Assembly: GCF_963576675.1 (NCBI RefSeq)
Contig: NC_088910.1
Coordinates: 109,830,807 to 109,894,806, forward strand
Source of the DNA: Euphorbia lathyris
Lineage: Eukaryota > Streptophyta > Magnoliopsida > Malpighiales > Euphorbiaceae
Length of the DNA stretch: 64,000 nucleotides
Direction: 5' to 3'
The notes beneath the pieces were generated by a model that saw only the letters and a program-made list of their open reading frames with translations, did no database searches and had not been told where the DNA came from. Positions 1 to 29,972 of this stretch are shown piece by piece (the stretch's first letter is position 1; the number at the start of each line of letters is the position of its first letter). Position numbers and translations under genes: made by a program.

Positions 1-674
1 ATATTAAACTTTTAAGTGTAACTAATGATAACAAATTAATTTAATTAGAACAAGAGTTATAGAGGAACTCTAGTATACCTTTCAAAGCAATCCTCAGTGG
101 AGACTTCTGAACTCTGCCTGACACCCTCTCATTATCATCATGGGTTATGGCTGTGTTCCAGCATCTCTACACACCTCTTGGAGTCGTCTGAAGGCTAACT
201 ATTGTTGCTTTATAACTCTGGATCTTTTTAAACTAATATGCTATACGGAAGTTAAACTTAAGTAGTTAACAACTATGGATGCTAAAAGGGGAAGTTTAGA
301 AAGCCATGGATATAGAGAGAAAGAAAGCTTTTATTGCTCAAAGCAAGTTATGTCTCATACATCATATGTCTTCTCCTTATATAGGTAGAAGATCAAAGGT
401 GAAATTACAAAAAAGGAGATTACATCATCACAAAAGTTAAAAGTACAAACTTTTAGGTTACACGTGTCGAATGCTTCTTATTTTGCTCTTCCACCTCAAG
501 CTTTACATCTTGCCACTAATCTCTAATGTTTCCACCTCATGCTTCTTCTTTGGACACATGTCTCTTCATATCTTCATGTCTTGCCACGTGTTGATCTTAT
601 TGCCACCTTTTCTTTAGGTATTGACACCTCGTTCTTATATTTCTTATTTTTCTTATCCATTTTTATCTCATTTT
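1..674 (-). promoter_or_regulatory. Caulimovirid intergenic region, copy A
   Basis: Non-coding viral region downstream of the transactivator on the minus strand. A TATA box lies at 376-383 (reverse complement TATATAAG) and a polyadenylation hexamer AATAAA at 330-335, 40-50 bases further along in the direction of transcription. This is the usual arrangement of a pararetroviral promoter followed closely by its own poly(A) signal. Two ACGT-core (CACGTG) motifs lie upstream, near 463 and 586. The same region recurs at 3301-3958, 8238-9030 and 16562-17348. Confidence 0.75.
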
Positions 675-1775: not shown

Positions 1776-3300
1776 TCCTGCTCAAAAAATCAGCTAAGAT
1801 ATTTCGTTTTCCAGAGATAGGTTTAACAACAAAATTATAGCAATTGAAAAAACTTTGCCAATGCCTTCTTTTGTTCAATTCTGGTAGGGGATCTATTTTA
1901 TTTCTGATAAATGCTCCTACTTGTGTATTATCTGTTCTTATGATAAATTCTATGGGTAACAAATGATACCTAAATCCTTTAATTCCATTTTTAACAGCTA
2001 GTAATTCTTTTTCATTGATATGATAATTTTTCTCTGAGGGTTTCCAAGTTCCTGATCTATAGCCACATATTAAAGGAGTTTCTTTGTCTATATCTTCTTT
2101 TCTATATGCGATGAGTACTGCTCCCCACCCGATATCACTAGCATCTGTATATAATTCTAATTGATCATTATCTTTAGGTAGTCTTAATTTTGGGAGAACT
2201 TTTACTGCTTCTTTTATTTTTCTTATAGTATCAGTGTGAGTTGTCGTCCATTCAAATACTTTATGTTTCTTAATTAGCTCTTGCAAGGGTTGTCGTAATT
2301 TTGGTAAGTCTTTTATATAATCTGATGCATAATTTATTATTCCTAGAAATTGTTGTACTTCTTTCTTAGTATCTAATTTTTCTTTAAAATTTTCGATTCT
2401 AGTTACGATATGATCTTGTAGTTGTAATCCTTCACTATCTATTATATATCCTAAATATTCTATTTTATTTTTAAAGATTTCTGATTTCTTTTCAGATAAA
2501 AGGATTCCATGTTGTCGTACTGTTTTTATAAATGCATCTAGGTGCTGTAAATGGTCTGCTATATTATTGCTATAGATTAATATATCATCGACATAAACTA
2601 CACAGAAGTCATTTAATTTTCTAAATATCGTATCCATTCATCGTTGAAATATCTGGGGTGCATTTTTCAAACCAAAAGGTAACACAATCCATTCATAATG
2701 TCCTTGTGGTGCACTAAATGCTGTTAAAGGTCTTGATTCTTTAGTAAGCTTAATTTGCCAAAAGCCACTTTTACAATCAAATTTACTAAACCACTTTTTT
2801 CCTGATAATCTATTAATTAAATTTCTCTTATAAGGTAAAAAATATCCATCAAAAATCATTTTCTTATTTAGTTCTCGATAATCTATTACCATTCTTGCTT
2901 TGCCTCTCTTTTGTTCGCTATGTTTTCTTACTAAGAATGCCGGGCTACTATGAGGGCTTTTACTTTCTTGAATTAATTTTAAGTCTAATAATTCTTTTAT
3001 TTGTATTTCAAATTCCTTTTGATCATCAGGACTATATCTTATTGGTCTAGTGCGAACAACATCATTAGGGTTTATGAGTTCTATCGTAGCATATATCTTT
3101 TCTTTTTCCCACAACGTTATAGGGTTTTCTCCAAAGTTGATCTTTAAATGGTCTAAATATTTTTGTTTTAAAAGTTCTAAATTAGTATCTCTGTTTGTTT
3201 TGATATTATGTATTGTGAGTGGATATAAAGGTAGGACGCGCTTAAGGATAATCCATTTATTACAAGGAGTTAAAAGACTTATGGTTTCAGGTTTGATTAG
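1699..3300 (-). pseudogene. Caulimovirid Pol (RT-RNase H), 5'-truncated with a nonsense codon, copy A
   Basis: Minus-strand polymerase remnant. It lacks the protease and the first ~106 codons because of the junction at 3300. One in-frame TGA at 2638-2640 replaces the CGA arginine codon that precedes Met-Asp-Thr-Ile in the other copies. A second difference near 2861 changes Thr to Met. Both are C-to-T on the coding strand at a CpG, as expected from deamination of methylated cytosine. The RT YVDD box and RNase H motifs lie downstream of the stop and are otherwise intact. Confidence 0.9.
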
Positions 3301-3958
3301 TGTAACTAATGATAACAAATTAATTTAATTAGAACAAGAGTTATAGAGGAACTCTAGTATACCTTTCAAAGCAATCCTCAGTGGAGACTTCTGAACTCTG
3401 CCTGACACCCTCTCATTATCATCATGGGTTATGGCTGTGTTCCAGCATCTCTACACACCTCTTGGAGTCGTCTGAAGGCTAACTATTGTTGCTTTATAAC
3501 TCTGGATCTTTTTAAACTAATATGCTATACGGAAGTTAAACTTAAGTAGTTAACAACTATGGATGCTAAAAGGGGAAGTTTAGAAAGCCATGGATATAGA
3601 GAGAAAGAAAGCTTTTATTGCTCAAAGCAAGTTATGTCTCATACATCATATGTCTTCTCCTTATATAGGTAGAAGATCAAAGGTGAAATTACCAAAAAGG
3701 AGATTACATCATCACAAAAGTTAAAAGTACAAACTTTTAGGTTACACGTGTCGAATGCTTCTTATTTTGCTCTTCCACCTCAAGCTTTACATCTTGCCAC
3801 TAATCTCTAATGTTTCCACCTCATGCTTCTTCTTTGGACACATGTCTCTTCATATCTTCATGTCTTGCCACGTGTTGATCTTATTGCCACCTTTTCTTTA
3901 GGTATTGACACCTCGTTCTTATATTTCTTATTTTTCTTATCCATTTTTATCTCATTTT
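3301..3958 (-). promoter_or_regulatory. Caulimovirid intergenic region, copy B
   Basis: Same region as at 1-674. TATA box at 3660-3667 and AATAAA at 3614-3619, both on the minus strand. It stops at 3301, before the leader end and primer-binding site, and is joined directly to mid-Pol sequence of copy A. Confidence 0.75.
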
Positions 3959-5059
3959 CTAAATAAATGGATCCTCCTCTTTTCCTGGATGGGCTTCTTC
4001 TTTGGGCCTTATGGAGTCAATATTCATGGGCTCAGGTCTTATGGGCTCAATTCTAATTAAACATGATTTTCTTGGGCCATATATAGATTCATAATGGGCT
4101 AATGTATCTGAACTATGTTTATATTTCTTATCCATCAATTTCGTATGCATTTCTATCAAAATTTGTTGACTCGTTTCATCACCCATTTCCATTAAATAGT
4201 TGATAGTTATCATTTCTTCAACTTCTCCATGATTCGATCTGGCTATTATAGCCACCTTTTTATTTCTAATATAGTCTTCGAGTCTACATTTGATCGTATG
4301 GATTCCATGTGCTCGTTTTTCTCCTAACCAAGATTTAAAATTTTCTAATTTGCATGGAATGTCCCATTGATGGTCGGAATTATCTACATCAATCTTAGTG
4401 TTTCTACCAGTCTTAAAAATCTGAGCAATTATTATCGGTTTCCCTTCTAAGTCCATAGCAGCATCAAAAATTTGAACACAAAATATTCCTCTTCCAAATC
4501 TTAATCCAAGTTCGTCAATGGATCTAGGTATGATAGATGGGAGTTTTGAAACACTATTAAGGCTCTCATCAGTCATGACTTTGTCCAGAAATCCATATCG
4601 AAATAGTTTCTGAACAACATCTGGACTGCAGTCTTCTGAGCATATATACCTAGGGTATTTGGTCATCTTAATGGTTCTATATACGGTTTGACTCTTCTTA
4701 TATGTAAAAAATTTCATGATATTCTTATATGCTTCTGTCATTTCTGGAGGGAATTGTATAACCTGGGAGGTTGTGATTTCTGATGAGTTCTGATTAATCA
4801 GCTTAGAATGGTTCAAGGTGGTGGCTCCTGAGAGTCCACTAGATGAAGTTGGCAGCTCAATTGGCTTCTTATGAAGATCTCCTAACAACTCATAAGATGA
4901 TCTAGGAGTCATGGTTCGTATATTCTGATTGTTCTGAGACTGGAGTTTCTTGAGTTCTTCCTCAAGGTTGTCTAGAAAGTTCTCATGATTTCTGATCATT
5001 GCCAGCATCTGGCGGTTCTGATTTCTGATTTCTGATATTCGCTGGATCATTATCTCCAT
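3959..5059 (-). CDS. Caulimovirid transactivator (TAV), copy B
   Basis: Intact 366-codon ORF, same predicted protein as 15461-16561. Expected to act in the cytoplasm as inclusion-body matrix and reinitiation factor. N-terminal coiled-coil-like segment, LLGDLHKK motif near residue 60, conserved core at about 185-300. It overlaps Pol (4983-6905) by 77 bases. No break seen. Confidence 0.86.
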   Translation of the reverse strand: MEIMIQRISEIRNQNRQMLAMIRNHENFLDNLEEELKKLQSQNNQNIRTMTPRSSYELLGDLHKKPIELPTSSSGLSGATTLNHSKLINQNSSEITTSQVIQFPPEMTEAYKNIMKFFTYKKSQTVYRTIKMTKYPRYICSEDCSPDVVQKLFRYGFLDKVMTDESLNSVSKLPSIIPRSIDELGLRFGRGIFCVQIFDAAMDLEGKPIIIAQIFKTGRNTKIDVDNSDHQWDIPCKLENFKSWLGEKRAHGIHTIKCRLEDYIRNKKVAIIARSNHGEVEEMITINYLMEMGDETSQQILIEMHTKLMDKKYKHSSDTLAHYESIYGPRKSCLIRIEPIRPEPMNIDSIRPKEEAHPGKEEDPFI

Positions 5060-6905
5060 TCCTGCTCAAAAAATCAGCTAAGATATTTCGTTTTCCAGAG
5101 ATAGGTTTAACAACAAAATTATAGCAATTGAAAAAACTTTGCCAATGCCTTCTTTTGTTCAATTCTGGTAGGGGATCTATTTTATTTCTGATAAATGCTC
5201 CTACTTGTGTATTATCTGTTCTTATGATAAATTCTATGGGTAACAAATGATACCTAAATCCTTTAATTCCATTTTTAACAGCTAGTAATTCTTTTTCATT
5301 GATATGATAATTTTTCTCTGAGGGTTTCCAAGTTCCTGATCTATAGCCACATATTAAAGGAGTTTCTTTGTCTATATCTTCTTTTCTATATGCGATGAGT
5401 ACTGCTCCCCACCCGATATCACTAGCATCTGTATATAATTCTAATTGATCATTATCTTTAGGTAGTCTTAATTTTGGGAGAACTTTTACTGCTTCTTTTA
5501 TTTTTCTTATAGTATCAGTGTGAGTTGTCGTCCATTCAAATACTTTATGTTTCTTAATTAGCTCTTGCAAGGGTTGTCGTAATTTTGGTAAGTCTTTTAT
5601 ATAATCTGATGCATAATTTATTATTCCTAGAAATTGTTGTACTTCTTTCTTAGTATCTAATTTTTCTTTAAAATTTTCGATTCTAGTTACGATATGATCT
5701 TGTAGTTGTAATCCTTCACTATCTATTATATATCCTAAATATTCTATTTTATTTTTAAAGATTTCTGATTTCTTTTCAGATAAAAGGATTCCATGTTGTC
5801 GTACTGTTTTTATAAATGCATCTAGGTGCTGTAAATGGTCTGCTATATTATTGCTATAGATTAATATATCATCGACATAAACTACACAGAAGTCATTTAA
5901 TTTTCTAAATATCGTATCCATTCGTCGTTGAAATATCTGGGGTGCATTTTTCAAACCAAAAGGTAACACAATCCATTCATAATGTCCTTGTGGTGCACTA
6001 AATGCTGTTAAAGGTCTTGATTCTTTAGTAAGCTTAATTTGCCAAAAGCCACTTTTACAATCAAATTTACTAAACCACTTTTTTCCTGATAATCTATTAA
6101 TTAAATTTCTCTTATAAGGTAAAAAATATCCATCAAAAATCGTTTTCTTATTTAGTTCTCGATAATCTATTACCATTCTTGCTTTGCCTCTCTTTTGTTC
6201 GCTATGTTTTCTTACTAAGAATGCCGGGCTACTATGAGGGCTTTTACTTTCTTGAATTAATTTTAAGTCTAATAATTCTTTTATTTGTATTTCAAATTCC
6301 TTTTGATCATCAGGACTATATCTTATTGGTCTAGTGCGAACAACATCATTAGGGTTTATGAGTTCTATCGTAGCATATATCTTTTCTTTTTCCCACAACG
6401 TTATAGGGTTTTCTCCAAAGTTGATCTTTAAATGGTCTAAATATTTTTGTTTTAAAAGTTCTAAATTAGTATCTCTGTTTGTTTTGATATTATGTATTGT
6501 GAGTGGATATAAAGGTAGGACGCGCTTAAGGATAATCCATTTATTACAAGGAGTTAAAAGACTTATGGTTTCAGGTTTGATTAGCTGGACTTTAAAGAAA
6601 TCAAGAAAATTATTTCCTAATAATATATGTTGTTTCATATTATTTTCTTGATAAATTATGGGTAATCGAAAGATTGTCTTGTTAAGTATTAATCTCATAT
6701 TTTCGGCTATAATATCTAATTCTTTCATTTGTTCATTAAATCCTGTAACTCTGACCTTATGTCCTTTAGATCTTTTCCATTTATGGGGAACTAGTACATC
6801 TTGCTTCGCTAAACATATATCAGCTCCACTATCTATAAATATGCGGCGTTTTATAATCTTATTAGGTTTATATTCTACCGGTGCTTCTACATATATGGCT
6901 ACCAT
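4983..6905 (-). CDS. Caulimovirid protease-reverse transcriptase-RNase H polyprotein, copy B
   Basis: Intact 640-codon ORF, the same as copy C at 13615-15537. Aspartic protease with Asp25-Ser-Gly near the N-terminus; RT with YVDD at residues 343-346; RNase H beginning at the Tyr-Thr-Asp-Ala motif (Asp493). It would copy pregenomic RNA into DNA. Its start codon overlaps the capsid stop codon by one base (TAATG). It has the CGA arginine codon that is mutated to stop in copy A. Confidence 0.93.
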   Translation of the reverse strand: MVAIYVEAPVEYKPNKIIKRRIFIDSGADICLAKQDVLVPHKWKRSKGHKVRVTGFNEQMKELDIIAENMRLILNKTIFRLPIIYQENNMKQHILLGNNFLDFFKVQLIKPETISLLTPCNKWIILKRVLPLYPLTIHNIKTNRDTNLELLKQKYLDHLKINFGENPITLWEKEKIYATIELINPNDVVRTRPIRYSPDDQKEFEIQIKELLDLKLIQESKSPHSSPAFLVRKHSEQKRGKARMVIDYRELNKKTIFDGYFLPYKRNLINRLSGKKWFSKFDCKSGFWQIKLTKESRPLTAFSAPQGHYEWIVLPFGLKNAPQIFQRRMDTIFRKLNDFCVVYVDDILIYSNNIADHLQHLDAFIKTVRQHGILLSEKKSEIFKNKIEYLGYIIDSEGLQLQDHIVTRIENFKEKLDTKKEVQQFLGIINYASDYIKDLPKLRQPLQELIKKHKVFEWTTTHTDTIRKIKEAVKVLPKLRLPKDNDQLELYTDASDIGWGAVLIAYRKEDIDKETPLICGYRSGTWKPSEKNYHINEKELLAVKNGIKGFRYHLLPIEFIIRTDNTQVGAFIRNKIDPLPELNKRRHWQSFFNCYNFVVKPISGKRNILADFLSRNGDNDPANIRNQKSEPPDAGNDQKS

Positions 6906-7980
6906 TAGTTATTAGTTTCACTATCTTCATATTCTATTGGTTCTAATTCTTCTGAGTTCTCACCTTCTGTTTCAGTAATATAAAATTCATCTTCTTTATG
7001 CCATTTATCATCGCTGGCTCTTATTTGTTCTAGACTCATTATAAATTCTGTTGTTCCTATATATTTGACACCTTTTTGTTTTAATTTAGGGCATTTATTA
7101 GCATAATGTCCTTTCTCATTACAATTCCAACATTTACATTCTGTAAGTTTAGTATTTTTATCCCTTAGTGGTCTTTCTCGTCTTTTCCTAAATTTTCGTT
7201 TATATCTAAATCTGTTCCGATTTTCGGGATTATTTTTATATCGTCTAAATCGTTTTCGTCGAAATCGTCCATTATCATACTTGTTAGTATAAGACTTCTT
7301 ATATGTCGGATTATGTCTATAAGTGCGATTAGGAGTATATCGTCTATATTTTCTCCTAATTTTATCATCACAACCAAAAACTAACCGTTTTTCCGTGAAT
7401 CCACATATTTCTCGTAACCCGAGTTTCTTATCCTTTTTAACCTTTTGTTGAACTCTATATTCTTCACATTTTCGCATAAGATAAGCTCGTAGTACTCTAA
7501 TTCTTTCTCCTAATGTATTTTCTTTTGGTTCTAATTGAGTATATTCTTTTGAAACTTCTACGTTGTATGGGTTTGGTAAGTGGTCATAATATAGTTGTTG
7601 GTATATCAATCCTTCTTGTGGTAAAAACCTAGCTTCATAAAAGAACTTAGTAAAACTGATAGTATATTCTGGTAATTTACTAATTTTACAACATTTCATG
7701 TTATTCAAATTCATTATTATTTCAGCTTTTCTTTCAGCAAATACTGTTTCTCTAGCCACTAACCATCTTTCTCCTAAAAATTCTCTTTTTAATACCATAT
7801 CGAATAATAATAACATTGATTTCCAATCATGAGCACAAGCTTCTATTTGTGGTCTTAACTGATGAGTTATAGATTCCATCCAAAATCCTACTTTTCCTAT
7901 CATTGTTTTAGAGATTAGGTCATACATATAATCTAAATTTTCAGTGTGAGATGAATTCATTAAGGCTATGTACATTCCTA
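6905..7980 (-). pseudogene. Caulimovirid capsid protein, N-terminally truncated, copy B
   Basis: C-terminal half of the capsid gene (about residues 312-667 of copy C at 11612-13615). The open frame runs a few codons into the inverted neighbour and finds a fortuitous ATG at 7996. The real N-terminal coiled-coil and acidic region is absent, cut off at the head-to-head junction. Retained parts: capsid core, Arg/Lys-rich nucleic-acid-binding region, CX2CX4HX4C zinc knuckle and acidic tail. Confidence 0.88.
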
Positions 7981-7982
7981 AA

Positions 7983-8237
7983 ATGATAACTATCAACTAT
8001 TTAATGGAAATGGGTGATGAAACGAGTCAACAAATTTTGATAGAAATGCATACGAAATTGATGGATAAGAAATATAAACATAGTTCAGATACATTAGCCT
8101 ATTATGAATCTATATATGGCCCAAGAAAATCATGTTTAATTAGAATTGAGCCCATAAGACCTGAGCCCATGAATATTGACTCCATAAGGCCCAAAGAAGA
8201 AGCCCATCCAGGAAAAGAGGAGGATCCATTTATTTAG
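7983..8237 (+). pseudogene. Transactivator 3' fragment at left end of copy C
   Basis: The last 84 codons of the transactivator, matching 16307-16561 except for a C-to-T change that turns His into Tyr (near 8108). Its 5' part is replaced by inverted copy B. An ATG at 7968 contributed by copy B opens the frame by chance. It is a terminal-redundancy fragment, not a gene. Confidence 0.9.
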
Positions 8238-9092
8238 AAAATGAGATAAAAATGGATAAGAAAAATAAGAAATATAAGAACGAGGTGTCAATACCTAAAG
8301 AAAAGGTGGCAATAAGATCAACACGTGGCAAGACATGAAGATATGAAGAGACATGTGTCCAAAGAAGAAGCATGAGGTGGAAACATTAGAGATTAGTGGC
8401 AAGATGTAAAGCTTGAGGTGGAAGAGCAAAATAAGAAGCATTCGACACGTGTAACCTAAAAGTTTGTACTTTTAACTTTTGTGATGATGTAATCTCCTTT
8501 TTGGTAATTTCACCTTTGATCTTCTACCTATATAAGGAGAAGACATATGATGTATGAGACATAACTTGCTTTGAGCAATAAAAGCTTTCTTTCTCTCTAT
8601 ATCCATGGCTTTCTAAACTTCCCCTTTTAGCATCCATAGTTGTTAACTACTTAAGTTTAACTTCCGTATAGCATATTAGTTTAAAAAGATCCAGAGTTAT
8701 AAAGCAACAATAGTTAGCCTTCAGACGACTCCAAGAGGTGTGTAGAGATGCTGGAACACAGCCATAACCCATGATGATAATGAGAGGGTGTCAGGCAGAG
8801 TTCAGAAGTCTCCACTGAGGATTGCTTTGAAAGGTATACTAGAGTTCCTCTATAACTCTTGTTCTAATTAAATTAATTTGTTATCATTAGTTACACTTAA
8901 AAGTTTAATATATTGTGGATGTTAAATTTCATTTAACAATGTTTACTTCAGCAGTCGTTTGTCTTCCTACCCTTTTTAGGGTCATAAGAGCGATCCTGCA
9001 CACATTATACACATCAGAAAAAACGGTCCACATAAAATGGTATCAGAGCTTTCAAAGGATCTCACAAATAGTTAGAACTTTTTGAAATCACT
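8238..9092 (+). promoter_or_regulatory. Caulimovirid promoter and leader, 5' copy of C
   Basis: Intergenic region upstream of all eight ORFs. TATA box (TATATAAG) at 8529-8536; AATAAA at 8577-8582; CACGTG-core motifs near 8324 and 8446. Transcription would start shortly after the TATA box, giving a leader of about 530 bases that includes the primer-binding site at 9038-9050. No start site was mapped. A second copy of promoter and poly(A) signal sits at 16847-16900. Confidence 0.75.
9038..9050 (+). other. Primer-binding site for initiator tRNA-Met (minus-strand start)
   Basis: TGGTATCAGAGCT matches the complement of the 3' end of plant initiator tRNA-Met over its first 12 bases. In caulimovirids this primes reverse transcription and marks the minus-strand discontinuity. 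It lies 43 bases upstream of the first ORF. It is absent at the right end of copy C, where viral sequence stops just short of it. Confidence 0.9.
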
Positions 9093-9371
9093 ATGTCATC
9101 TTCATATACCAGTATGTTTGCATCACAGCTTAATATTCATAGGAAAGCAGTTGATAAAATTACAAGCGGCATAATTGAATTAGATTTAAGCAATAGTTTA
9201 GAAATTTCTATTCTATTAGGCAAATTAATTATATTATTAGAATATTACCAACATCTCCTTAATATAGGAACTAGTGATCTAAATAGGCATATAATGTTAA
9301 TAAGAAAAGTAGAAATGATTAAATGTCTAATTAATTTCACAATCGTGATTTTTCAGAATTATACACACTAG
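9093..9371 (+). CDS. Small caulimovirid ORF of unknown function (92 aa)
   Basis: First ORF after the primer-binding site, 92 codons. It is Ser/Ile/Leu-rich and mostly helical in appearance, with no motif I recognise. By position it corresponds to the small leader-proximal ORF (ORF VII-like) of caulimoviruses, whose function is generally unclear. It ends three bases before the next ATG at 9375, the tight spacing expected under reinitiation. It could be a non-conserved ORF, but the compact neighbourhood argues for a real gene. Confidence 0.6.
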   Translation: MSSSYTSMFASQLNIHRKAVDKITSGIIELDLSNSLEISILLGKLIILLEYYQHLLNIGTSDLNRHIMLIRKVEMIKCLINFTIVIFQNYTH

Positions 9372-9374
9372 ATA

Positions 9375-9698
9375 ATGGATATACCAGTTGAAAGTCTTAG
9401 GATTATTGCTGAAGAACCATTAATTTATAATCAGGATATCAATCAACATATTATAAGTTGTAGAAGAGCATTACAAATTATGGAATTAAAAGATAGACAA
9501 TTAGAAGTAGCACAAGGTGCTTTAGATGCTAAGCGTATTGAAAAGATAAAATTACAAAAAAGAGTTTTTGACTTAGAAGATGAAGTAAAACGATTAGAAG
9601 AAAAACATAGAGAGCAAGAAGAGACAATAGAAATTCAAAAACAAATAATTACTGAAAGTTACAGACATATTCAAGCTTTAATCAATGGAAGAGAATAA
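9375..9698 (+). CDS. Small caulimovirid coiled-coil ORF (107 aa)
   Basis: 107 codons. Residues ~35-95 are a strong heptad-like coiled coil rich in Lys, Glu, Gln and Leu. Its last 14 bases overlap the movement-protein start at 9685. No enzyme motif. Position upstream of the movement protein is not where caulimoviruses place their aphid-transmission or virion-associated proteins, so I do not name it. A role in multimerisation or virion association is only a guess from the coiled coil. Confidence 0.65.
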   Translation: MDIPVESLRIIAEEPLIYNQDINQHIISCRRALQIMELKDRQLEVAQGALDAKRIEKIKLQKRVFDLEDEVKRLEEKHREQEETIEIQKQIITESYRHIQALINGRE

Positions 9699-10956
9699 AG
9701 AAATAACAGAACAAACCCATACAGAAAATACTAATATCTACTATCAAATGGATACTTATGAAGGTGGTATAACTCAAACTTTAAGTTTTAAACCAGATAT
9801 TTATCAGAAAATACAAGATGAAACTGAAGAGCTATCTGTAAATAAGATATTTAAAACAAAATGGTTTGAGAGAAATAAAAATATACGATATATTGTTCAG
9901 AAGCATGAGAATATTATAGATACAACTACTATAAATGGTAGAGCAAGGATAAATTTAATAACAAATGACGTAATAAAAAGAGAATTATCCAAATTATCAC
10001 ATAAAGAAGCAAAGAAATATAGGAATATTTACTTTGGAGGAATAGAATTCACTATAAAAGCATATTTTCAGAAAAATATCGATACTCCTATTCAAATATA
10101 TGTATTAGATGATAGAATATTAGATAATATCCAAGATGCCTTAATAGCAGTAGTAAGAGGAAACTTAATTTATCAGAAACTTAAATTCACAATTCAACCA
10201 GATTTTAGTATCTCATTAGAAGATAAACATAAAGATCTAGCTTTAACACTCTATTATAAATTAGAAGGAATAAGAATGCCCCCAGGAAGTAAAGTAATTA
10301 GTATAGAAACAAAAATGATATATGCCCTTACAGGTAATCATCATATCAGAAAACAAAATGATAGGGATATATTAGTACCAAAATTATATCAGGAAATATT
10401 AGAACCACTAGAACATAAGGAAAATTCCATCATAACAATACCAGACGAAATATGTATAGATTTTAATTCTAGAAAACTACAACCAATCCAGAAATTATTA
10501 CCTAGGATAGAAGGAGGAAGGTTAAGTTTTAAGAAAGAAATAATAAGACAACCGAGAACATTAGATTTATTACATACATATTATGAAGATAAGTTACGAA
10601 TAAAAGTAATATTATTTAATGAGCTACGAGCAACTGACTGTATAGCTGAAATTAATACAGGAACCAAAAGTTTAGTACATATTAGCCAAATAAATGAGAA
10701 TAAATGTGAACTAATCGAACCACAAACTTATAACTGTCCAAATAGTACAAGAGAAATAATCATAACTAAAAGCATAAGAATTAGATTTAAAATTCAAGAT
10801 CTAGAATATGAGATAATTGTAGGAGTAACAGAATATGATAGTACATATGCACTATTATTAGGATACGACTTTTTAAATAAAATAAAATATAAGATAAATA
10901 ATGAAGGAATTACGATAGAGGACCAAAACAAAATACGGTATATAAATAAAATATGA
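9685..10956 (+). CDS. Caulimovirid movement protein with C-terminal retropepsin-like domain (423 aa)
   Basis: Residues ~50-235 fit the 30K-type movement protein core; an Ile-Tyr-Val-Leu-Asp-Asp stretch carries the characteristic aspartate. Family role: forming tubules or modifying plasmodesmata so that virus moves between cells. Residues ~300-420 look like an aspartic-protease fold: an Ile-Asn324-Thr-Gly pattern where a protease has Asp-Thr/Ser-Gly, and a Leu-Leu-Leu-Gly-Tyr-Asp stretch (about 390-395) like the second conserved strand of retropepsins. Replacement of the catalytic Asp by Asn suggests an inactive, structural domain. The stop overlaps the next start (ATGA at 10953). Confidence 0.82.
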   Translation: MEENKEITEQTHTENTNIYYQMDTYEGGITQTLSFKPDIYQKIQDETEELSVNKIFKTKWFERNKNIRYIVQKHENIIDTTTINGRARINLITNDVIKRELSKLSHKEAKKYRNIYFGGIEFTIKAYFQKNIDTPIQIYVLDDRILDNIQDALIAVVRGNLIYQKLKFTIQPDFSISLEDKHKDLALTLYYKLEGIRMPPGSKVISIETKMIYALTGNHHIRKQNDRDILVPKLYQEILEPLEHKENSIITIPDEICIDFNSRKLQPIQKLLPRIEGGRLSFKKEIIRQPRTLDLLHTYYEDKLRIKVILFNELRATDCIAEINTGTKSLVHISQINENKCELIEPQTYNCPNSTREIIITKSIRIRFKIQDLEYEIIVGVTEYDSTYALLLGYDFLNKIKYKINNEGITIEDQNKIRYINKI

Positions 10957-11180
10957 ACATACGACAACAACTTGATAAAAAAGAGAAAAAATTACAAATA
11001 ATAAAAACTATTATGGCAGAGACAATCATAGAATCTCAAATAAAATATTTAGAAATTGAATCTAAACAACAGAGACTAGAATGTGAAATCAAACAATTAA
11101 ACTCTTTATTAGAACCACCTAAGAAAGAATGGATCAAACTTGAAGACGGATGGATAAAAAGAATCTACAAAGATGAGTGA
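10953..11180 (+). CDS. Small caulimovirid coiled-coil ORF (75 aa)
   Basis: 75 codons, beginning in an ATGA overlap with the movement-protein stop and overlapping the next ORF start (11173) by 8 bases. Residues ~5-55 form a Lys/Glu/Gln/Ile-rich helix of coiled-coil type; the C-terminus has Trp-Ile-Lys repeats. By position it sits where caulimoviruses have ORF II (aphid transmission factor), but it is much shorter than that protein and shows no recognisable motif, so the function is unknown. Confidence 0.65.
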   Translation: MNIRQQLDKKEKKLQIIKTIMAETIIESQIKYLEIESKQQRLECEIKQLNSLLEPPKKEWIKLEDGWIKRIYKDE

Positions 11181-11607
11181 TCCTAACCAAAAATTGGACC
11201 AAATATGGATAGAGATTGTAGCAAAAGAACAATTAAAGAATACTCTTAGTTTAATACAAGAAAACCATATTCAAATCCAAGAAATGATAACACATGAATT
11301 AACAAAACTGTGGAATACATCGGAAATACCAACGTTTAAGATAATTTTGGAAAAATTAAACATGTTAGTAGCTAATATAGACAAAAGAAAAAGACCCATA
11401 GAAGAAAGCTGTAGCATTACCTCAGGAGAAAATCTAAACATTACTATAACACAAACTAAAACTCCAGAAATAGTACCCATAGATGCTTGGAGACGAAGCA
11501 AGGACCCAATAATGATGGATATAAGTGAAATAAAACCTAAAATCCCTACAACCGTAAATAAAACCTTAGATCTGTTAACCGATTTACACAAAAAAGGACA
11601 ATTCTAA
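11173..11607 (+). CDS. Putative virion-associated-type protein (ORF III position, 144 aa)
   Basis: 144 codons directly upstream of the capsid gene, the usual place of the virion-associated protein in caulimoviruses. That protein is a coiled-coil protein of about this size which binds capsids and the movement protein. The N-terminal ~70 residues look helical. The C-terminus contains Pro-rich stretches and ends in Leu-Leu-Thr-Asp-Leu-His-Lys-Lys, strikingly like the LLGDLHKK motif in the transactivator of the same virus. Stop at 11605-11607 is four bases before the capsid ATG. Naming rests on position, length and coiled coil. Confidence 0.6.
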   Translation: MSDPNQKLDQIWIEIVAKEQLKNTLSLIQENHIQIQEMITHELTKLWNTSEIPTFKIILEKLNMLVANIDKRKRPIEESCSITSGENLNITITQTKTPEIVPIDAWRRSKDPIMMDISEIKPKIPTTVNKTLDLLTDLHKKGQF

Positions 11608-11611
11608 TCTA

Positions 11612-13615
11612 ATGGCCGAACAAGAACATAGTGTAATAACATTTCTTAAAAATCACGCCCAAGAAATTATTGAAAAGGAAAAATACAAATATGAACCGCT
11701 AAAAAACAGCAAACTCAAAGACAATGATGCTAAACCATCCAATGTAGACGTAAGCACCGAAGCCGAATACCTTCAACTAAAAATCGAAAAACAACATAAA
11801 GAAATCAAAGACCTACAAAAAGAAAACATAAAATTAGTCATAAATTCGAGTACAGAATGGGTCGAAAAATATAAAAAATATAAACACAAATTTAAAAATA
11901 CTAAAAAAGAATTAAAAGAAACAAAGCTAGAATTAAAACAAACAAAAACAGAGCTAATCCACATTACAGATGAATTAAAAGAATTAAAGGAAGAAGTAAG
12001 AGTCTTAAGAACAATGGTTAAAGAAGTAAAAGGGAAAACTATTCACATCAGTAACAGTAGTAGTGATAGTTCAGATAGTTCAGATATTCAAAGTGAAAAT
12101 AAACTAAAAATCATTGGGTATATAGAAGAAGAAAATAAAGATGAAACAAAATTAATAGAAGAAAATCATCAAATAATGAAAGCATTAGAACAAATGAAGA
12201 ACATTAATGCAATAATAGAAGAAGAACCAGAAAGTGATATAGAAAACAACGAATACAACAACAAATACACTAGGTATGAAGAATCAGATATAGGATCAGA
12301 AAATATAGTAAACGAAGATGCCGATAATTATCCAGAAGAAGAAATGATAGACCCCAATTTAGACGTAGTAACTAAAAGAGTACCTACGATTCCACAACAT
12401 ATACCTATAGGCCAACAAGGAGACTTTAAAGAATTTATAGGATCTATGTCTCAAGGATTAAATCCAAATGGATATTTTTTAGACTTGGATAATGTCTATG
12501 ATGAACAAGAAATAAGTAGACGAATAAATGATTGGAATTTAGGAATGTACATAGCCTTAATGAATTCATCTCACACTGAAAATTTAGATTATATGTATGA
12601 CCTAATCTCTAAAACAATGATAGGAAAAGTAGGATTTTGGATGGAATCTATAACTCATCAGTTAAGACCACAAATAGAAGCTTGTGCTCATGATTGGAAA
12701 TCAATGTTATTATTATTCGATATGGTATTAAAAAGAGAATTTTTAGGAGAAAGATGGTTAGTGGCTAGAGAAACAGTATTTGCTGAAAGAAAAGCTGAAA
12801 TAATAATGAATTTGAATAACATGAAATGTTGTAAAATTAGTAAATTACCAGAATATACTATCAGTTTTACTAAGTTCTTTTATGAAGCTAGGTTTTTACC
12901 ACAAGAAGGATTGATATACCAACAACTATATTATGACCACTTACCAAACCCATACAACGTAGAAGTTTCAAAAGAATATACTCAATTAGAACCAAAAGAA
13001 AATACATTAGGAGAAAGAATTAGAGTACTACGAGCTTATCTTATGCGAAAATGTGAAGAATATAGAGTTCAACAAAAGGTTAAAAAGGATAAGAAACTCG
13101 GGTTACGAGAAATATGTGGATTCACGGAAAAACGGTTAGTTTTTGGTTGTGATGATAAAATTAGGAGAAAATATAGACGATATACTCCTAATCGCACTTA
13201 TAGACATAATCCGACATATAAGAAGTCTTATACTAACAAGTATGATAATGGACGATTTCGACGAAAACGATTTAGACGATATAAAAATAATCCCGAAAAT
13301 CGGAACAGATTTAGATATAAACGAAAATTTAGGAAAAGACGAGAAAGACCACTAAGGGATAAAAATACTAAACTTACAGAATGTAAATGTTGGAATTGTA
13401 ATGAGAAAGGACATTATGCTAATAAATGCCCTAAATTAAAACAAAAAGGTGTCAAATATATAGGAACAACAGAATTTATAATGAGTCTAGAACAAATAAG
13501 AGCCAGCGATGATAAATGGCATAAAGAAGATGAATTTTATATTACTGAAACAGAAGGTGAGAACTCAGAAGAATTAGAACCAATAGAATATGAAGATAGT
13601 GAAACTAATAACTAA
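11612..13615 (+). CDS. Caulimovirid capsid protein (667 aa)
   Basis: Structural protein packaging viral DNA and binding pregenomic RNA. Domains by eye: coiled coil at ~50-138; Ser/Asp-rich acidic stretch at ~147-158; long acidic region to ~255; conserved capsid core at ~270-500; Arg/Lys/Tyr-rich basic region at ~510-585; zinc knuckle CX2CX4HX4C at ~593-606; acidic tail. Acidic ends flanking a basic, zinc-knuckle region are typical of caulimovirid capsid precursors, which are processed and phosphorylated. It is longer than many relatives, chiefly through the N-terminal coiled coil. The stop overlaps the Pol start by one base. Confidence 0.9.
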   Translation: MAEQEHSVITFLKNHAQEIIEKEKYKYEPLKNSKLKDNDAKPSNVDVSTEAEYLQLKIEKQHKEIKDLQKENIKLVINSSTEWVEKYKKYKHKFKNTKKELKETKLELKQTKTELIHITDELKELKEEVRVLRTMVKEVKGKTIHISNSSSDSSDSSDIQSENKLKIIGYIEEENKDETKLIEENHQIMKALEQMKNINAIIEEEPESDIENNEYNNKYTRYEESDIGSENIVNEDADNYPEEEMIDPNLDVVTKRVPTIPQHIPIGQQGDFKEFIGSMSQGLNPNGYFLDLDNVYDEQEISRRINDWNLGMYIALMNSSHTENLDYMYDLISKTMIGKVGFWMESITHQLRPQIEACAHDWKSMLLLFDMVLKREFLGERWLVARETVFAERKAEIIMNLNNMKCCKISKLPEYTISFTKFFYEARFLPQEGLIYQQLYYDHLPNPYNVEVSKEYTQLEPKENTLGERIRVLRAYLMRKCEEYRVQQKVKKDKKLGLREICGFTEKRLVFGCDDKIRRKYRRYTPNRTYRHNPTYKKSYTNKYDNGRFRRKRFRRYKNNPENRNRFRYKRKFRKRRERPLRDKNTKLTECKCWNCNEKGHYANKCPKLKQKGVKYIGTTEFIMSLEQIRASDDKWHKEDEFYITETEGENSEELEPIEYEDSETNN

Positions 13616-15537
13616 TGGTAGCCATATATGTAGAAGCACCGGTAGAATATAAACCTAATAAGATTATAAAACGCCGCATATTTATAGATAGTGGAGCTGA
13701 TATATGTTTAGCGAAGCAAGATGTACTAGTTCCCCATAAATGGAAAAGATCTAAAGGACATAAGGTCAGAGTTACAGGATTTAATGAACAAATGAAAGAA
13801 TTAGATATTATAGCCGAAAATATGAGATTAATACTTAACAAGACAATCTTTCGATTACCCATAATTTATCAAGAAAATAATATGAAACAACATATATTAT
13901 TAGGAAATAATTTTCTTGATTTCTTTAAAGTCCAGCTAATCAAACCTGAAACCATAAGTCTTTTAACTCCTTGTAATAAATGGATTATCCTTAAGCGCGT
14001 CCTACCTTTATATCCACTCACAATACATAATATCAAAACAAACAGAGATACTAATTTAGAACTTTTAAAACAAAAATATTTAGACCATTTAAAGATCAAC
14101 TTTGGAGAAAACCCTATAACGTTGTGGGAAAAAGAAAAGATATATGCTACGATAGAACTCATAAACCCTAATGATGTTGTTCGCACTAGACCAATAAGAT
14201 ATAGTCCTGATGATCAAAAGGAATTTGAAATACAAATAAAAGAATTATTAGACTTAAAATTAATTCAAGAAAGTAAAAGCCCTCATAGTAGCCCGGCATT
14301 CTTAGTAAGAAAACATAGCGAACAAAAGAGAGGCAAAGCAAGAATGGTAATAGATTATCGAGAACTAAATAAGAAAACGATTTTTGATGGATATTTTTTA
14401 CCTTATAAGAGAAATTTAATTAATAGATTATCAGGAAAAAAGTGGTTTAGTAAATTTGATTGTAAAAGTGGCTTTTGGCAAATTAAGCTTACTAAAGAAT
14501 CAAGACCTTTAACAGCATTTAGTGCACCACAAGGACATTATGAATGGATTGTGTTACCTTTTGGTTTGAAAAATGCACCCCAGATATTTCAACGACGAAT
14601 GGATACGATATTTAGAAAATTAAATGACTTCTGTGTAGTTTATGTCGATGATATATTAATCTATAGCAATAATATAGCAGACCATTTACAGCACCTAGAT
14701 GCATTTATAAAAACAGTACGACAACATGGAATCCTTTTATCTGAAAAGAAATCAGAAATCTTTAAAAATAAAATAGAATATTTAGGATATATAATAGATA
14801 GTGAAGGATTACAACTACAAGATCATATCGTAACTAGAATCGAAAATTTTAAAGAAAAATTAGATACTAAGAAAGAAGTACAACAATTTCTAGGAATAAT
14901 AAATTATGCATCAGATTATATAAAAGACTTACCAAAATTACGACAACCCTTGCAAGAGCTAATTAAGAAACATAAAGTATTTGAATGGACGACAACTCAC
15001 ACTGATACTATAAGAAAAATAAAAGAAGCAGTAAAAGTTCTCCCAAAATTAAGACTACCTAAAGATAATGATCAATTAGAATTATATACAGATGCTAGTG
15101 ATATCGGGTGGGGAGCAGTACTCATCGCATATAGAAAAGAAGATATAGACAAAGAAACTCCTTTAATATGTGGCTATAGATCAGGAACTTGGAAACCCTC
15201 AGAGAAAAATTATCATATCAATGAAAAAGAATTACTAGCTGTTAAAAATGGAATTAAAGGATTTAGGTATCATTTGTTACCCATAGAATTTATCATAAGA
15301 ACAGATAATACACAAGTAGGAGCATTTATCAGAAATAAAATAGATCCCCTACCAGAATTGAACAAAAGAAGGCATTGGCAAAGTTTTTTCAATTGCTATA
15401 ATTTTGTTGTTAAACCTATCTCTGGAAAACGAAATATCTTAGCTGATTTTTTGAGCAGGAATGGAGATAATGATCCAGCGAATATCAGAAATCAGAAATC
15501 AGAACCGCCAGATGCTGGCAATGATCAGAAATCATGA
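13615..15537 (+). CDS. Caulimovirid protease-reverse transcriptase-RNase H polyprotein (640 aa)
   Basis: Replication polyprotein. Aspartic protease at ~15-110 with catalytic Asp25-Ser-Gly. RT at ~180-400 with the Phe-Asp-Cys-Lys-Ser-Gly-Phe-Trp motif and the catalytic YVDD at 343-346. RNase H at ~485-620 with Asp493 in Tyr-Thr-Asp-Ala, a Glu in the Glu-Lys-Glu-Leu-Leu helix, and a later Arg-Thr-Asp. There is no integrase, as usual for caulimovirids. Start chosen from the TAATG overlap with the capsid stop, which copy B also has. The last 77 bases overlap the transactivator. Confidence 0.95.
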   Translation: MVAIYVEAPVEYKPNKIIKRRIFIDSGADICLAKQDVLVPHKWKRSKGHKVRVTGFNEQMKELDIIAENMRLILNKTIFRLPIIYQENNMKQHILLGNNFLDFFKVQLIKPETISLLTPCNKWIILKRVLPLYPLTIHNIKTNRDTNLELLKQKYLDHLKINFGENPITLWEKEKIYATIELINPNDVVRTRPIRYSPDDQKEFEIQIKELLDLKLIQESKSPHSSPAFLVRKHSEQKRGKARMVIDYRELNKKTIFDGYFLPYKRNLINRLSGKKWFSKFDCKSGFWQIKLTKESRPLTAFSAPQGHYEWIVLPFGLKNAPQIFQRRMDTIFRKLNDFCVVYVDDILIYSNNIADHLQHLDAFIKTVRQHGILLSEKKSEIFKNKIEYLGYIIDSEGLQLQDHIVTRIENFKEKLDTKKEVQQFLGIINYASDYIKDLPKLRQPLQELIKKHKVFEWTTTHTDTIRKIKEAVKVLPKLRLPKDNDQLELYTDASDIGWGAVLIAYRKEDIDKETPLICGYRSGTWKPSEKNYHINEKELLAVKNGIKGFRYHLLPIEFIIRTDNTQVGAFIRNKIDPLPELNKRRHWQSFFNCYNFVVKPISGKRNILADFLSRNGDNDPANIRNQKSEPPDAGNDQKS

Positions 15538-16561
15538 GAACTTTCTAGACAACCTTGAGGAAGAACTCAAGAAACTCCAGTCTCAGAACAATCAGAATAT
15601 ACGAACCATGACTCCTAGATCATCTTATGAGTTGTTAGGAGATCTTCATAAGAAGCCAATTGAGCTGCCAACTTCATCTAGTGGACTCTCAGGAGCCACC
15701 ACCTTGAACCATTCTAAGCTGATTAATCAGAACTCATCAGAAATCACAACCTCCCAGGTTATACAATTCCCTCCAGAAATGACAGAAGCATATAAGAATA
15801 TCATGAAATTTTTTACATATAAGAAGAGTCAAACCGTATATAGAACCATTAAGATGACCAAATACCCTAGGTATATATGCTCAGAAGACTGCAGTCCAGA
15901 TGTTGTTCAGAAACTATTTCGATATGGATTTCTGGACAAAGTCATGACTGATGAGAGCCTTAATAGTGTTTCAAAACTCCCATCTATCATACCTAGATCC
16001 ATTGACGAACTTGGATTAAGATTTGGAAGAGGAATATTTTGTGTTCAAATTTTTGATGCTGCTATGGACTTAGAAGGGAAACCGATAATAATTGCTCAGA
16101 TTTTTAAGACTGGTAGAAACACTAAGATTGATGTAGATAATTCCGACCATCAATGGGACATTCCATGCAAATTAGAAAATTTTAAATCTTGGTTAGGAGA
16201 AAAACGAGCACATGGAATCCATACGATCAAATGTAGACTCGAAGACTATATTAGAAATAAAAAGGTGGCTATAATAGCCAGATCGAATCATGGAGAAGTT
16301 GAAGAAATGATAACTATCAACTATTTAATGGAAATGGGTGATGAAACGAGTCAACAAATTTTGATAGAAATGCATACGAAATTGATGGATAAGAAATATA
16401 AACATAGTTCAGATACATTAGCCCATTATGAATCTATATATGGCCCAAGAAAATCATGTTTAATTAGAATTGAGCCCATAAGACCTGAGCCCATGAATAT
16501 TGACTCCATAAGGCCCAAAGAAGAAGCCCATCCAGGAAAAGAGGAGGATCCATTTATTTAG
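15461..16561 (+). CDS. Caulimovirid translational transactivator / inclusion-body protein (366 aa)
   Basis: Last viral ORF, starting inside the Pol 3' end. Its predicted function is to allow translation of the overlapping upstream ORFs from one RNA and to form viroplasm. Residues 1-45 are Gln/Asn-rich and coiled-coil-like; LLGDLHKK at ~58-65; central TAV core at ~185-300 with Gly-Arg-Gly-Ile-Phe and several beta strands; Pro/Glu-rich C-terminus ending Asp-Pro-Phe-Ile. It is shorter than some family members. Followed by the intergenic region with its own TATA box and poly(A) signal. Confidence 0.87.
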   Translation: MEIMIQRISEIRNQNRQMLAMIRNHENFLDNLEEELKKLQSQNNQNIRTMTPRSSYELLGDLHKKPIELPTSSSGLSGATTLNHSKLINQNSSEITTSQVIQFPPEMTEAYKNIMKFFTYKKSQTVYRTIKMTKYPRYICSEDCSPDVVQKLFRYGFLDKVMTDESLNSVSKLPSIIPRSIDELGLRFGRGIFCVQIFDAAMDLEGKPIIIAQIFKTGRNTKIDVDNSDHQWDIPCKLENFKSWLGEKRAHGIHTIKCRLEDYIRNKKVAIIARSNHGEVEEMITINYLMEMGDETSQQILIEMHTKLMDKKYKHSSDTLAHYESIYGPRKSCLIRIEPIRPEPMNIDSIRPKEEAHPGKEEDPFI

Positions 16562-17348
16562 AAAATGAGATAAAAATGGATAAGAAAAATAAGAAATATA
16601 AGAACGAGGTGTCAATACCTAAAGAAAAGGTGGCAATAAGATCAACACGTGGCAAGACATATGAAGAGACATGTGTCCAAAGAAGAAGCATGAGGTGGAA
16701 ACATTAGAGATTAGTGGCAAGATGTAAAGCTTGAGGTGGAAGAGCAAAATAAGAAGCATTCGACACGTGTAACCTAAAAGTTTGTACTTTTAACTTTTGT
16801 GATGATGTAATCTCCTTTTTGGTAATTTCACCTTTGATCTTCTACCTATATAAGGAGAAGACATATGATGTATGAGACATAACTTGCTTTGAGCAATAAA
16901 AGCTTTCTTTCTCTCTATATCCATGGCTTTCTAAACTTCCCCTTTTAGCATCCATAGTTGTTAACTACTTAAGTTTAACTTCCGTATAGCATATTAGTTT
17001 AAAAAGATCCAGAGTTATAAAGCAACAATAGTTAGCCTTCAGACGACTCCAAGAGGTGTGTAGAGATGCTGGAACACAGCCATAACCCATGATGATAATG
17101 AGAGGGTGTCAGGCAGAGTTCAGAAGTCTCCACTGAGGATTGCTTTGAAAGGTATACTAGAGTTCCTCTATAACTCTTGTTCTAATTAAATTAATTTGTT
17201 ATCATTAGTTACACTTAAAAGTTTAATATATTATGGATGTTAAATTTCATTTAACAATGTTTACTTCAGCAGTCGTTTGTCTTCCTACCCTTTTTAGGGT
17301 CATAAGAGCGATCCTGCACACATTATACACATCAGAAAAAACGGTCCA
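16562..17348 (+). promoter_or_regulatory. Caulimovirid intergenic region, 3' copy of C
   Basis: Repeat of 8238-9030 with a 6-base deletion near 16655. TATA box at 16847-16854, AATAAA at 16895-16900. Here it lies downstream of all ORFs, so a transcript starting at the 5' copy could be polyadenylated here with terminal redundancy, as in the pregenomic RNA of the family. The last viral base is at about 17348-17349, where the match to 9030 ends and unrelated sequence starts. Confidence 0.78.
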
Positions 17349-18866
17349 CCGAAGAAATTTATTCATTAGACGAGGTTATTCATTTATCGAACATTCATTT
17401 ATCGAGGTTCTACTGTAATCAAAATGATATTATTAGAGACCCACCCATATACTTGCGGAGATATTTTGGGTTTTAAATTAATGAATTTTTAGCAAGTAAA
17501 ACATCCACAATTAGACAAAAATATGATGGTTATAGTCAGAATAAATACATAAGGGCCCACTTGTTTATTTAGGGCAAATATTGCCAGAACTTATAAAAAA
17601 AATTGAGCGGTCTGTTGAATCTTCAAAGTGTTTCGATAATCCTTTTAACTGATATAAAATATTTAGTTAGTTTCCCGAATTTATATAAAATATAATCAAT
17701 TAATCATTTAATTTATATAATTAATTAATCATTTAATTATAAAAAAAAGTAAGTTAAATGTGAAAGATGTATTGCACGCGTCTTAAAAAAAATAAAACGA
17801 CCAAAGTCGGATATACAATTCTAATATTAGAGAATACAACTTTTATAGTTCAATAAGTAAAAACTTTTTTTTAAATCTATTTTATGTAATAGCAATATAA
17901 GATATATGAAATATATTTTTCGTATGCAACTTACTTTTTTTTTTTGTAATCAAATTATTATTTGATTATATTTTATATAAATTTATAAAATTAACTAAAT
18001 ATTTTATGCAAATTCACTGAGATATAAGAATACTTTGAAAATTCAGCGACGAATCAAATTTTTTTAGACAAAGTTTAAAATTCATATTAAGCATTTCTTT
18101 AGTTCATGATATTTTACATTGGCCAATCAGAAGCCACTTTAATGTTGATGGTGTCTTGTTTTGGTTTCCAATAATTGAGGGCAAAGTTCTATTCACTTGA
18201 AGTCATTAAATGGAGTCGATCATAACTCAGGTAGGTCTTTTATGTTATGAGTAACCAAAATCATCACTCAATTCAATCATTCATAACTATATAAGATCAA
18301 ATTAAATGAATACAACAATGACTATGAAATAAATTAACCTAAATTATAGTTTAGATTCAATTATATATCATTATTTTGTTACCATGCATATTTTGAAAGA
18401 TGGATTTGCAATTTTTTTTGGGACGAGATGCATGGATTTGATGTAAGAAACACTATAGGAGTGAATAGACACCCGAGACTTGTTACAAGGGTTGTTCTCA
18501 GATCTTCCAATCTTTAGTAGTAGCCCCCTATTACTACTGACGGAGCATTCTGGATGTATAATTGGTGTCTTTATATTAATAGAAACATTAGTGCATTATC
18601 ACATATTTGGTTACTTTCTATGTTGTATGTTGCTTGTCTCTATGTGTGATTGTTGTGGATTGCTTCTATGTTATGAATGTGAATGCTTGCCTCTATTTAG
18701 CCCGATTATGGCCTATTTCTAACCCATATATGTGACTATTACAGATATTATGAGTTATAATCCTTGGCTAGCTTACCTCTAGAGGGAAAGTAAGCACCAC
18801 ACGGTATAAACGAGTTGGCCCTGTGACACCATGCATATCCCAATTTTTTCTTGTAAATAAAATATA
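17349..18866. other. Unassigned AT-rich flank
   Basis: Host sequence right of the viral integration. I see no coding region I can support: the open frames at 17233-17418 and 18480-18722 have no recognisable content. AT-rich, with runs of A and T; possible decayed transposon pieces (for example the repeated CATTCATTTATCGA at 17380-17408), none assignable. Confidence 0.5.
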
Positions 18867-29913: not shown

Positions 29914-29972
29914 TTTTTACTTCTCGGCACATCTCAGGCTTACCTGCATTGTAATCAGTTTCCTTTAGGTAC

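What the first reader, a model, noticed from the sequence alone, without database searches (positions are those of the whole stretch)
7983..17348. Complete, terminally redundant endogenous caulimovirid with eight intact ORFs
The copy spans about 1.1 genomes, has open frames for every expected protein, a primer-binding site, and promoter plus poly(A) signal at both ends. The internal repeat defines an ~8.32-kb unit. Most endogenous caulimovirids are broken; an intact, terminally redundant one could be transcribed as full-length RNA, as known for endogenous petunia vein clearing virus and banana streak virus. It may be an undescribed species or genus.
Basis: partly seen in the sequence, partly recalled or inferred. 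Interest (0 to 1): 0.88.

Follow-up and report, generated by a model that had tools for sequence, protein, structure and literature searches.

The report
Recently captured plant virus in spurge
The genome of caper spurge carries many nearly identical, very young copies of an unnamed plant virus, and the edges of those copies suggest how the viral DNA got in: as a reverse-transcription product caught during the repair of staggered chromosome breaks.

Summary
Window 7983-17349 (+) is 1.13 units of an 8,318-bp caulimovirid with eight open frames, one tRNA-Met primer site, and TATA plus AATAAA at both ends. The host matches Euphorbia lathyris. By RT it groups with four unnamed relatives (73-79%), outside the named genera that could be compared.

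It is no stand-alone provirus: it is the right edge of a 42-kb multi-copy array. The closed primer-site junction occurs exactly 117 times genome-wide; the 100 places listed form 55 loci.

New are the edges. Of 29 virus-host junctions read at 17 loci, 8 fall within 11 nt around the minus-strand start (here D1), all on its 5' side; four keep 2-3 nt opposite the tRNA's CCA end. The window copy's 1,045-bp redundancy ends there too; 94, 104 and 454 bp occur elsewhere. Five of 12 loci read at both ends have exact 32-66-bp target duplications, the window's array included (32 bp).

Best reading: linear reverse-transcription products with a fixed D1 end were captured by end joining at staggered breaks, recently (at most about 10^5 generations). 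A new genus is likely, not proven. Expression and replication are untested.

The parts
7983..17349 (+). Terminally redundant caulimovirid copy, 1.13 units of 8,318 bp
7983..9031 (+). 5' redundancy (end of ORF8, promoter, leader up to D1)
16305..17349 (+). 3' redundancy; ends 6 nt before where the primer site would begin
8529..8535 (+). TATATAA, upstream promoter copy
8577..8582 (+). AATAAA, upstream copy
8562..9092 (+). Presumed RNA leader, one large hairpin (z -4.9; 0 of 100 shuffles as stable)
   Evidence: transcript start inferred from TATA
9038..9049 (+). tRNA-Met primer site (minus-strand start, D1)
9093..9371 (+). ORF1, 92 aa, no Pfam match
9375..9698 (+). ORF2, 107 aa, no Pfam match above cut-off
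9685..10956 (+). ORF3, movement protein, 423 aa
   Evidence: PF01107 E 8e-34
10953..11180 (+). ORF4, 75 aa, no Pfam match
11173..11607 (+). ORF5, 144 aa, no Pfam match
11612..13615 (+). ORF6, coat protein, 667 aa, with a zinc knuckle just under cut-off
   Evidence: PF22909 E 3e-10
13615..15537 (+). ORF7, protease-RT-RNase H, 640 aa
15461..16561 (+). ORF8, probable transactivator/viroplasmin, 366 aa
   Evidence: (fold)
16847..16853 (+). TATATAA, downstream copy
16895..16900 (+). AATAAA, downstream copy
3300..7982 (-). Inverted segment of the same virus, adjoining the element
1..3299 (-). Second inverted segment; runs off the window
17350..17381 (+). Right copy of the 32-bp target duplication; the left copy is at L029:5184-5215, next to the array's left edge at L029:5210

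Best explanation
Shown: a young, high-copy endogenous caulimovirid in Euphorbia lathyris whose virus-host junctions concentrate at the minus-strand DNA start (called D1 here, next to the tRNA primer site), and whose insertions carry 32-66-bp target duplications at 5 of 12 loci read at both ends. Inferred: during infection, reverse transcriptase started minus strands at D1, went once round and ran on past the start by strand displacement (94 to over 1,000 nt). This left linear or open double-stranded products with one fixed end (D1, sometimes with part of the tRNA CCA copied in) and one variable end. Such products, alone or already joined head to tail and head to head into arrays, were captured by host end joining at breaks whose two nicks lay some 30-70 bp apart; filling in the overhangs duplicated the target. 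The window copy's 1,045-bp redundancy is such an overshoot, and its 42-kb array probably entered as one event. No integrase is needed.
For: 8 of 29 host junctions end at unit positions 9030-9040; expected by chance 0.04, binomial P 4e-17 by junction, 2e-14 as 7 of 17 loci. All 8 lie on the upstream side and none of the 29 starts at the primer site, as expected if the other end is a variable overshoot. Four of the 8 keep TG or TGG of the site. Redundancies of 104, 454, 94 and 1,045 bp end at D1. Target duplications: 61 and 66 bp, 32 bp, 41 and 47 bp. One insertion (C7:80.4 Mb) is a single circle opened with 8 bp lost and a 61-bp duplication. ICTV's profile (PMC7660458, whole text) says discontinuities arise when the oncoming strand displaces the existing one. 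No rve or other integrase match in the eight frames.
Against: 21 of 29 host junctions are not at D1, so other ways of opening the circle also feed integration. 7 of 12 loci show no duplication in the fetched flanks. ICTV calls the displacement short; 1,045 nt is long. At C7:19.78 Mb the flank behind the 41-bp duplication also matches other stretches of the left flank, so that region is repetitive. Some arrays may have grown after insertion: C1:52.7 Mb repeats spacings 8321/6247, C1:132.76 Mb has 8652 twice. Loci were chosen by an internal 900-bp piece of near-100% identity, so older or truncated copies are unsampled. The middle 22 kb of the window's array was not read. One assembly, no reads.
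Confidence: 0.72

Rival explanations
1. The copies come from random breakage of closed circular or concatemeric viral DNA, joined by end joining; the D1 ends reflect only a fragile nick in the circle.
For: 21 of 29 host junctions are scattered; two circles were opened elsewhere, at 16852/16861 and at 12798.
Against: A break at a nick should leave ends on both sides of D1; 8 of 8 are on one side only, and redundancies of four lengths end at D1.
Confidence: 0.2
2. The copies spread after one or few insertions, by host duplication or by movement together with a retrotransposon.
For: Clusters with repeated spacings; review literature proposes retrotransposon help (PMC10377300, section 3.1).
Against: 55 loci on eight chromosomes; each of the 17 loci read has its own breakpoints, apart from D1; no constant 4-6-bp duplication seen.
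Confidence: 0.05
3. The structure is an assembly artefact from an infected plant's viral reads.
For: High identity and many copies.
Against: Exact 32-66-bp target duplications flank the virus at five loci, which misassembly would not make; private variants and broken frames differ between loci.
Confidence: 0.03

Closest known systems
Genus Caulimovirus (CaMV, DMV, SVBV and others)
   Same: Separate MP, CP, PR-RT-RH and transactivator frames in this order; primer site in the leader ahead of ORF1 (genus layout partly recalled)
   Different: RT at most 41% to the named members listed; outside their 43-row clade (support 100); eight frames instead of seven
Four unnamed RT relatives P0001-P0004
   Same: RT 73-79%; P0001 shares its contig length, 18,740, with the MP relative P0122 (68%)
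   Different: Source species not shown; P0004 is only 388 aa
Endogenous cotton pararetroviral elements (PMC10458927; abstract and section 3.3 read)
   Same: Recent endogenous copies, head to head, putative new genus
   Different: A few loci, against at least 55 here; sequences not compared
Recent endogenous pararetrovirus bursts in 19 genomes (PMC9794742, passages read)
   Same: Ten or more identical copies in one genome
   Different: Told there for RT domains; Euphorbia is not mentioned in that main text
ERTBV of rice (PMC526188, passages read)
   Same: Junctions concentrated in the intergenic region and at discontinuities; integration after reverse transcription proposed there, citing Jakowitsch et al.
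   Different: Rearranged copies with similarities told as above 80%; here single-nucleotide D1 ends and target duplications are visible
Hepatitis B virus double-stranded linear DNA integration (PMC5408681, passages read)
   Same: Works alike: a linear reverse-transcription product is joined to the chromosome by host end joining
   Different: Another family; protein primer instead of tRNA; somatic

Membership tests
Caulimoviridae | Genome unit of 7.1-9.8 kbp (PMC7660458) | tested here: met
   8,318 bp
Caulimoviridae | tRNA-Met primer site | tested here: met
Caulimoviridae | MP, CP, retropepsin, RT and RNase H domains | tested here: met
Caulimoviridae | Virions; episomal circular DNA | not testable with these tools
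   no reads or plants
Genus Caulimovirus | RT inside the genus clade | tested here: not met
   outside the 43-row clade that holds the named caulimoviruses (quick tree, SH-aLRT only)
Genus Soymovirus | Seven or eight ORFs | tested here: met
   eight
Genus Soymovirus | Primer site inside a small ORF (told for SbCMV, PCSV and WCSV-1 in PMC6482551, passages) | tested here: not met
   9038-9049 lies ahead of ORF1, outside the eight frames
Genus Soymovirus | RT inside the genus clade | tested here: inconclusive
   no row named as a soymovirus among the 120 listed of 682 RT hits, so none in the tree
Genus Rosadnavirus | RT next to rose yellow vein virus | tested here: not met
   RYVV pairs with Viola yellow mottle virus, far off; the eight ORFs do fit
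Genera Solendovirus and Cavemovirus | Four ORFs; RT with the TVCV-like rows or CsVMV | tested here: not met
Genus Ruflodivirus | RT with Rudbeckia flower distortion virus | tested here: inconclusive
   best fold match of ORF8, but no RUDV RT at hand
Infectious endogenous caulimovirids | Shown to give rise to infection | not tested
   step referred

The most novel reading that the evidence does not exclude
Plant pararetroviruses enter chromosomes by a hepadnavirus-like route: over-run linear reverse-transcription products with a fixed minus-strand start are captured at staggered breaks 30-70 bp wide. The terminal redundancy of an endogenous copy is then a direct record of strand displacement, and long target duplications are a general signature that older, decayed copies have lost.
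Probability: 0.55. Interest if true: 0.78.

Novelty: new member of a known kind. Interest (0 to 1): 0.62.

Why it matters
A 2023 review (PMC10377300, section 3.1 read) calls the way caulimovirid DNA is captured speculative, and many described copies are old and rearranged. Here dozens of insertions are young enough that exact viral ends and target duplications survive, so the question can be answered by counting junctions. It also adds a probable genus-level lineage. I saw no caulimovirid told from Euphorbia among the 20 papers listed of 178, which is not an exhaustive search.

Tried and rejected
Viral contig collection: 12 stretches matched a pattern, none encodes a relative of the RT. NCBIfam: one weak sub-cut-off RT match. 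A C-terminal retropepsin-like domain in the movement protein: profile probability 7.9%, E 0.0012 against solendo-/cavemovirus proteases; 0.8%, E 0.03 against caulimovirus ones; 0.05%, E 0.76 against its own group's protease; 30 column shuffles reached at most 1.4%. The MP model is poor (pLDDT 45) and its listed PDB matches are nearly all virus capsid proteins, so this stays a lead. Dating by the target duplications is too weak (247 bp in all). A soymovirus filing suggested by eight frames was dropped because of the primer-site position. From the junction list I dropped L003 (same junction as L009) and two edges of a 33-bp stray match 2.6 kb into one flank (L020). The first variant count (59 segments, 119,323 bases, 100 private variants) used overlapping loci and is replaced. 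A whole-genome count of D1-ended junctions was asked 13 times and never answered, so the D1 figures rest on the 29 junctions read.

Full report
WHERE IT IS. The window is G000:C1:109830807-109894806 of a 1.02-Gb genome in 33 contigs. A protein 98% identical to ORF8 is recorded as an uncharacterized protein of Euphorbia lathyris on a contig of 96,320,253 bases, exactly the length of contig C5 here. The host is therefore taken to be caper spurge (lineage).

WHAT IS THERE. The element runs from 7983 to 17349 on the + strand. A repeat of about 1.05 kb at its two ends (99.24%) sets a unit of 8,318 bp, or 8,324 on the other side of a 6-base indel. Eight frames are open. Pfam names MP, coat protein, protease, RT and RNase H and no integrase. 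ORF8 has no Pfam hit; its model is modest (pLDDT 56). Of its 15 best matches in the viral structure library, 13 are named caulimovirid transactivator, inclusion-body or ORF VI proteins, led by Rudbeckia flower distortion virus, and 2 have no name. The primer site is at 9038, TATA boxes at 8529 and 16847, AATAAA at 8577 and 16895. The presumed leader folds into one large hairpin (z -4.9, 0 of 100 shuffles as stable), as expected for ribosome shunting (recalled).

NOT ALONE. Window 1-7982 holds two inverted segments of the same virus. The array's left edge lies at C1:109806209, so the array is 41,947 bp long. Four further closed primer-site junctions lie in it, outside the window. Its middle 22 kb was not read. 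Genome-wide, the 32-base closed junction occurs exactly 117 times and the backwards control 0 times; the 100 places listed, on C1-C8, form 55 loci when places under 50 kb apart are joined. A 900-base piece had 278 candidates; 40 were scored, all printed as 100% identical, 34 of them at the top score.

HOW YOUNG. In 76 aligned segments (154,034 bases; loci L009-L045 and the window's other copies) divergence from the window copy is 0.31%. There are 122 private variants in 162,352 scored bases (7.5e-4 per site) and 51 shared ones. If every private variant arose after integration, the age is at most about 107,000 generations at 7e-9 per site, or 58,000 at 1.3e-8 (rates recalled). It is probably less. 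Shared coding variants are 16 silent, 22 replacing and 0 stop; private ones are 34, 65 and 6, with 5 more in overlapping frames. Random change predicts 20.5% silent and 6.6% stop. So shared variants look selected, as in a replicating virus, and private ones are nearer to neutral. A>C changes (33) outnumber T>G (6); even with the strand's A-richness P is 0.002, a strand bias that points to reverse transcription rather than chromosomal mutation. Frames aligned over their full length at copies other than the window element were open in 8 of 8 (ORF1), 8 of 8 (ORF2), 7 of 8 (MP), 9 of 10 (ORF4), 10 of 10 (ORF5), 5 of 8 (CP), 1 of 2 (ORF7; most fetched stretches cut this frame) and 13 of 13 (ORF8) (loci L001-L028 and the window's inverted segments). 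Most copies seen in pieces are thus only lightly damaged.

THE EDGES. I read 29 virus-host junctions at 17 loci (list recounted). The loci were chosen by the internal 900-base piece, so not by their edges. Eight junctions, at seven loci, end between unit positions 9030 and 9040: C5:95.05, C4:41.4 (both ends), C1:109.8 (the window), C2:111.29, C1:115.6, C1:84.58 and C1:125.24 Mb. The primer site begins at 9038. Four of the eight include TG or TGG, the 2-3 bases opposite the tRNA's CCA end; the other four stop 5-7 bases short of the site. Chance would give 0.04; P is 4e-17 by junction and 2e-14 by locus. All eight are the end upstream of the primer site; none of the 29 begins at the site. Copies with a D1 end carry redundancies of 104 (C1:84.58), 454 (C1:125.24), 94 (C1:115.6, joined to a preceding copy that itself stops near D1), 1,045 (window) and at least 2,982 bases (C2:111.29). 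The plain reading is a minus strand begun at D1 that ran past its own start. ICTV's profile describes such displacement, though as short. The other 21 junctions are scattered. C7:80.4 Mb is one circle opened in the TATA region with 8 bases lost. C7:19.78 Mb contains one circle opened at 12798, joined to an inverted second molecule whose end lies near D1.

TARGET DUPLICATIONS. Twelve of the 17 loci were read at both ends. Five have exact direct duplications next to the virus: 61 bp (C7:80.4) and 66 bp with 7 filler bases (C4:41.4), 32 bp (C1:109.8, the window's array), 41 bp (C7:19.78) and 47 bp (C4:61.65). The C7:19.78 case is the least clean, because its flank also matches other stretches on the far side. 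Seven loci have none in the fetched flanks. Varied lengths of 32-66 bp speak against an integrase, which leaves short constant duplications (recalled), and for filled-in staggered breaks. That the window's array has one duplication at its outer edges suggests it went in as one piece.

WHAT IT IS RELATED TO. Of 682 RT relatives the best 120 were listed, and 109 of these went into a tree of 110 rows. The window joins P0001-P0004 (support 100; P0001 is 79% identical over 605 columns), near other unnamed and Centaurea-derived rows with weaker support (84-92), outside the clade of named caulimoviruses and far from cavemo-, solendo- and rosadnavirus rows (quick method). MP has 8 relatives at E <= 1e-5 (57-69%). 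ORF8 has 7 at E <= 1e-3: the host's own copy and six at 32-41%. The 62% RT threshold used in PMC13308828 (one section and passages read) would keep the window with P0001-P0004 and apart from the other listed hits that cover most of the RT frame. Soymovirus, ruflodivirus and vaccinivirus RTs were not at hand, so 'new genus' is likely, not proven.

WHAT IS KNOWN. Bursts of identical copies were reported in 19 genomes (PMC9794742, passages). Junction preference for the intergenic region and the discontinuities, and integration after reverse transcription, were proposed for rice and tobacco (PMC526188, passages). Cotton has head-to-head recent copies (PMC10458927, abstract and one section). In the searches made (listings only for most papers) and the passages read I found no report of long target duplications or of D1 ends at single-nucleotide resolution in caulimovirids; many subscription papers are not in that library.

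Noticed in passing
window 9685-10956, C-terminal third: The movement protein group has an extension with EINTG(A/T) and LLLGxDFL motifs, like a retropepsin with its Asp changed to Asn; 8 of 9 aligned rows cover the first motif region well and one reads ISPG. Profile support is weak.
   Followed up: partly
G000:C1:52.66-52.78 Mb and C1:132.76-132.80 Mb: Clusters of 16 and 5 primer-site junctions with repeated spacings (8321/6247; 8652 twice), suggesting amplification during or after integration.
   Followed up: no
window 39149-40030 (-) and 46823-47605 (-): Two polygalacturonase-type (GH28) frames about 7 kb apart with near-equal scores, perhaps a tandem gene pair.
   Followed up: no
window 24650-31709 and 57271-63681: Two sets of a Transposase_32 frame next to copia-type gag/pol frames on the - strand, perhaps one composite element in two copies.
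   Followed up: no
window 18877-19416: Two tandem pairs of 91-base repeats that look inverted to each other, 1.5 kb from the viral end; perhaps a MITE-like element.
   Followed up: no
P0129, contig of C5's length: A public E. lathyris annotation lists a viral transactivator copy as an uncharacterized host protein.
   Followed up: partly
variants between copies: A>C changes outnumber T>G 33 to 6, a strand-biased signature that may mark the viral reverse transcriptase.
   Followed up: partly
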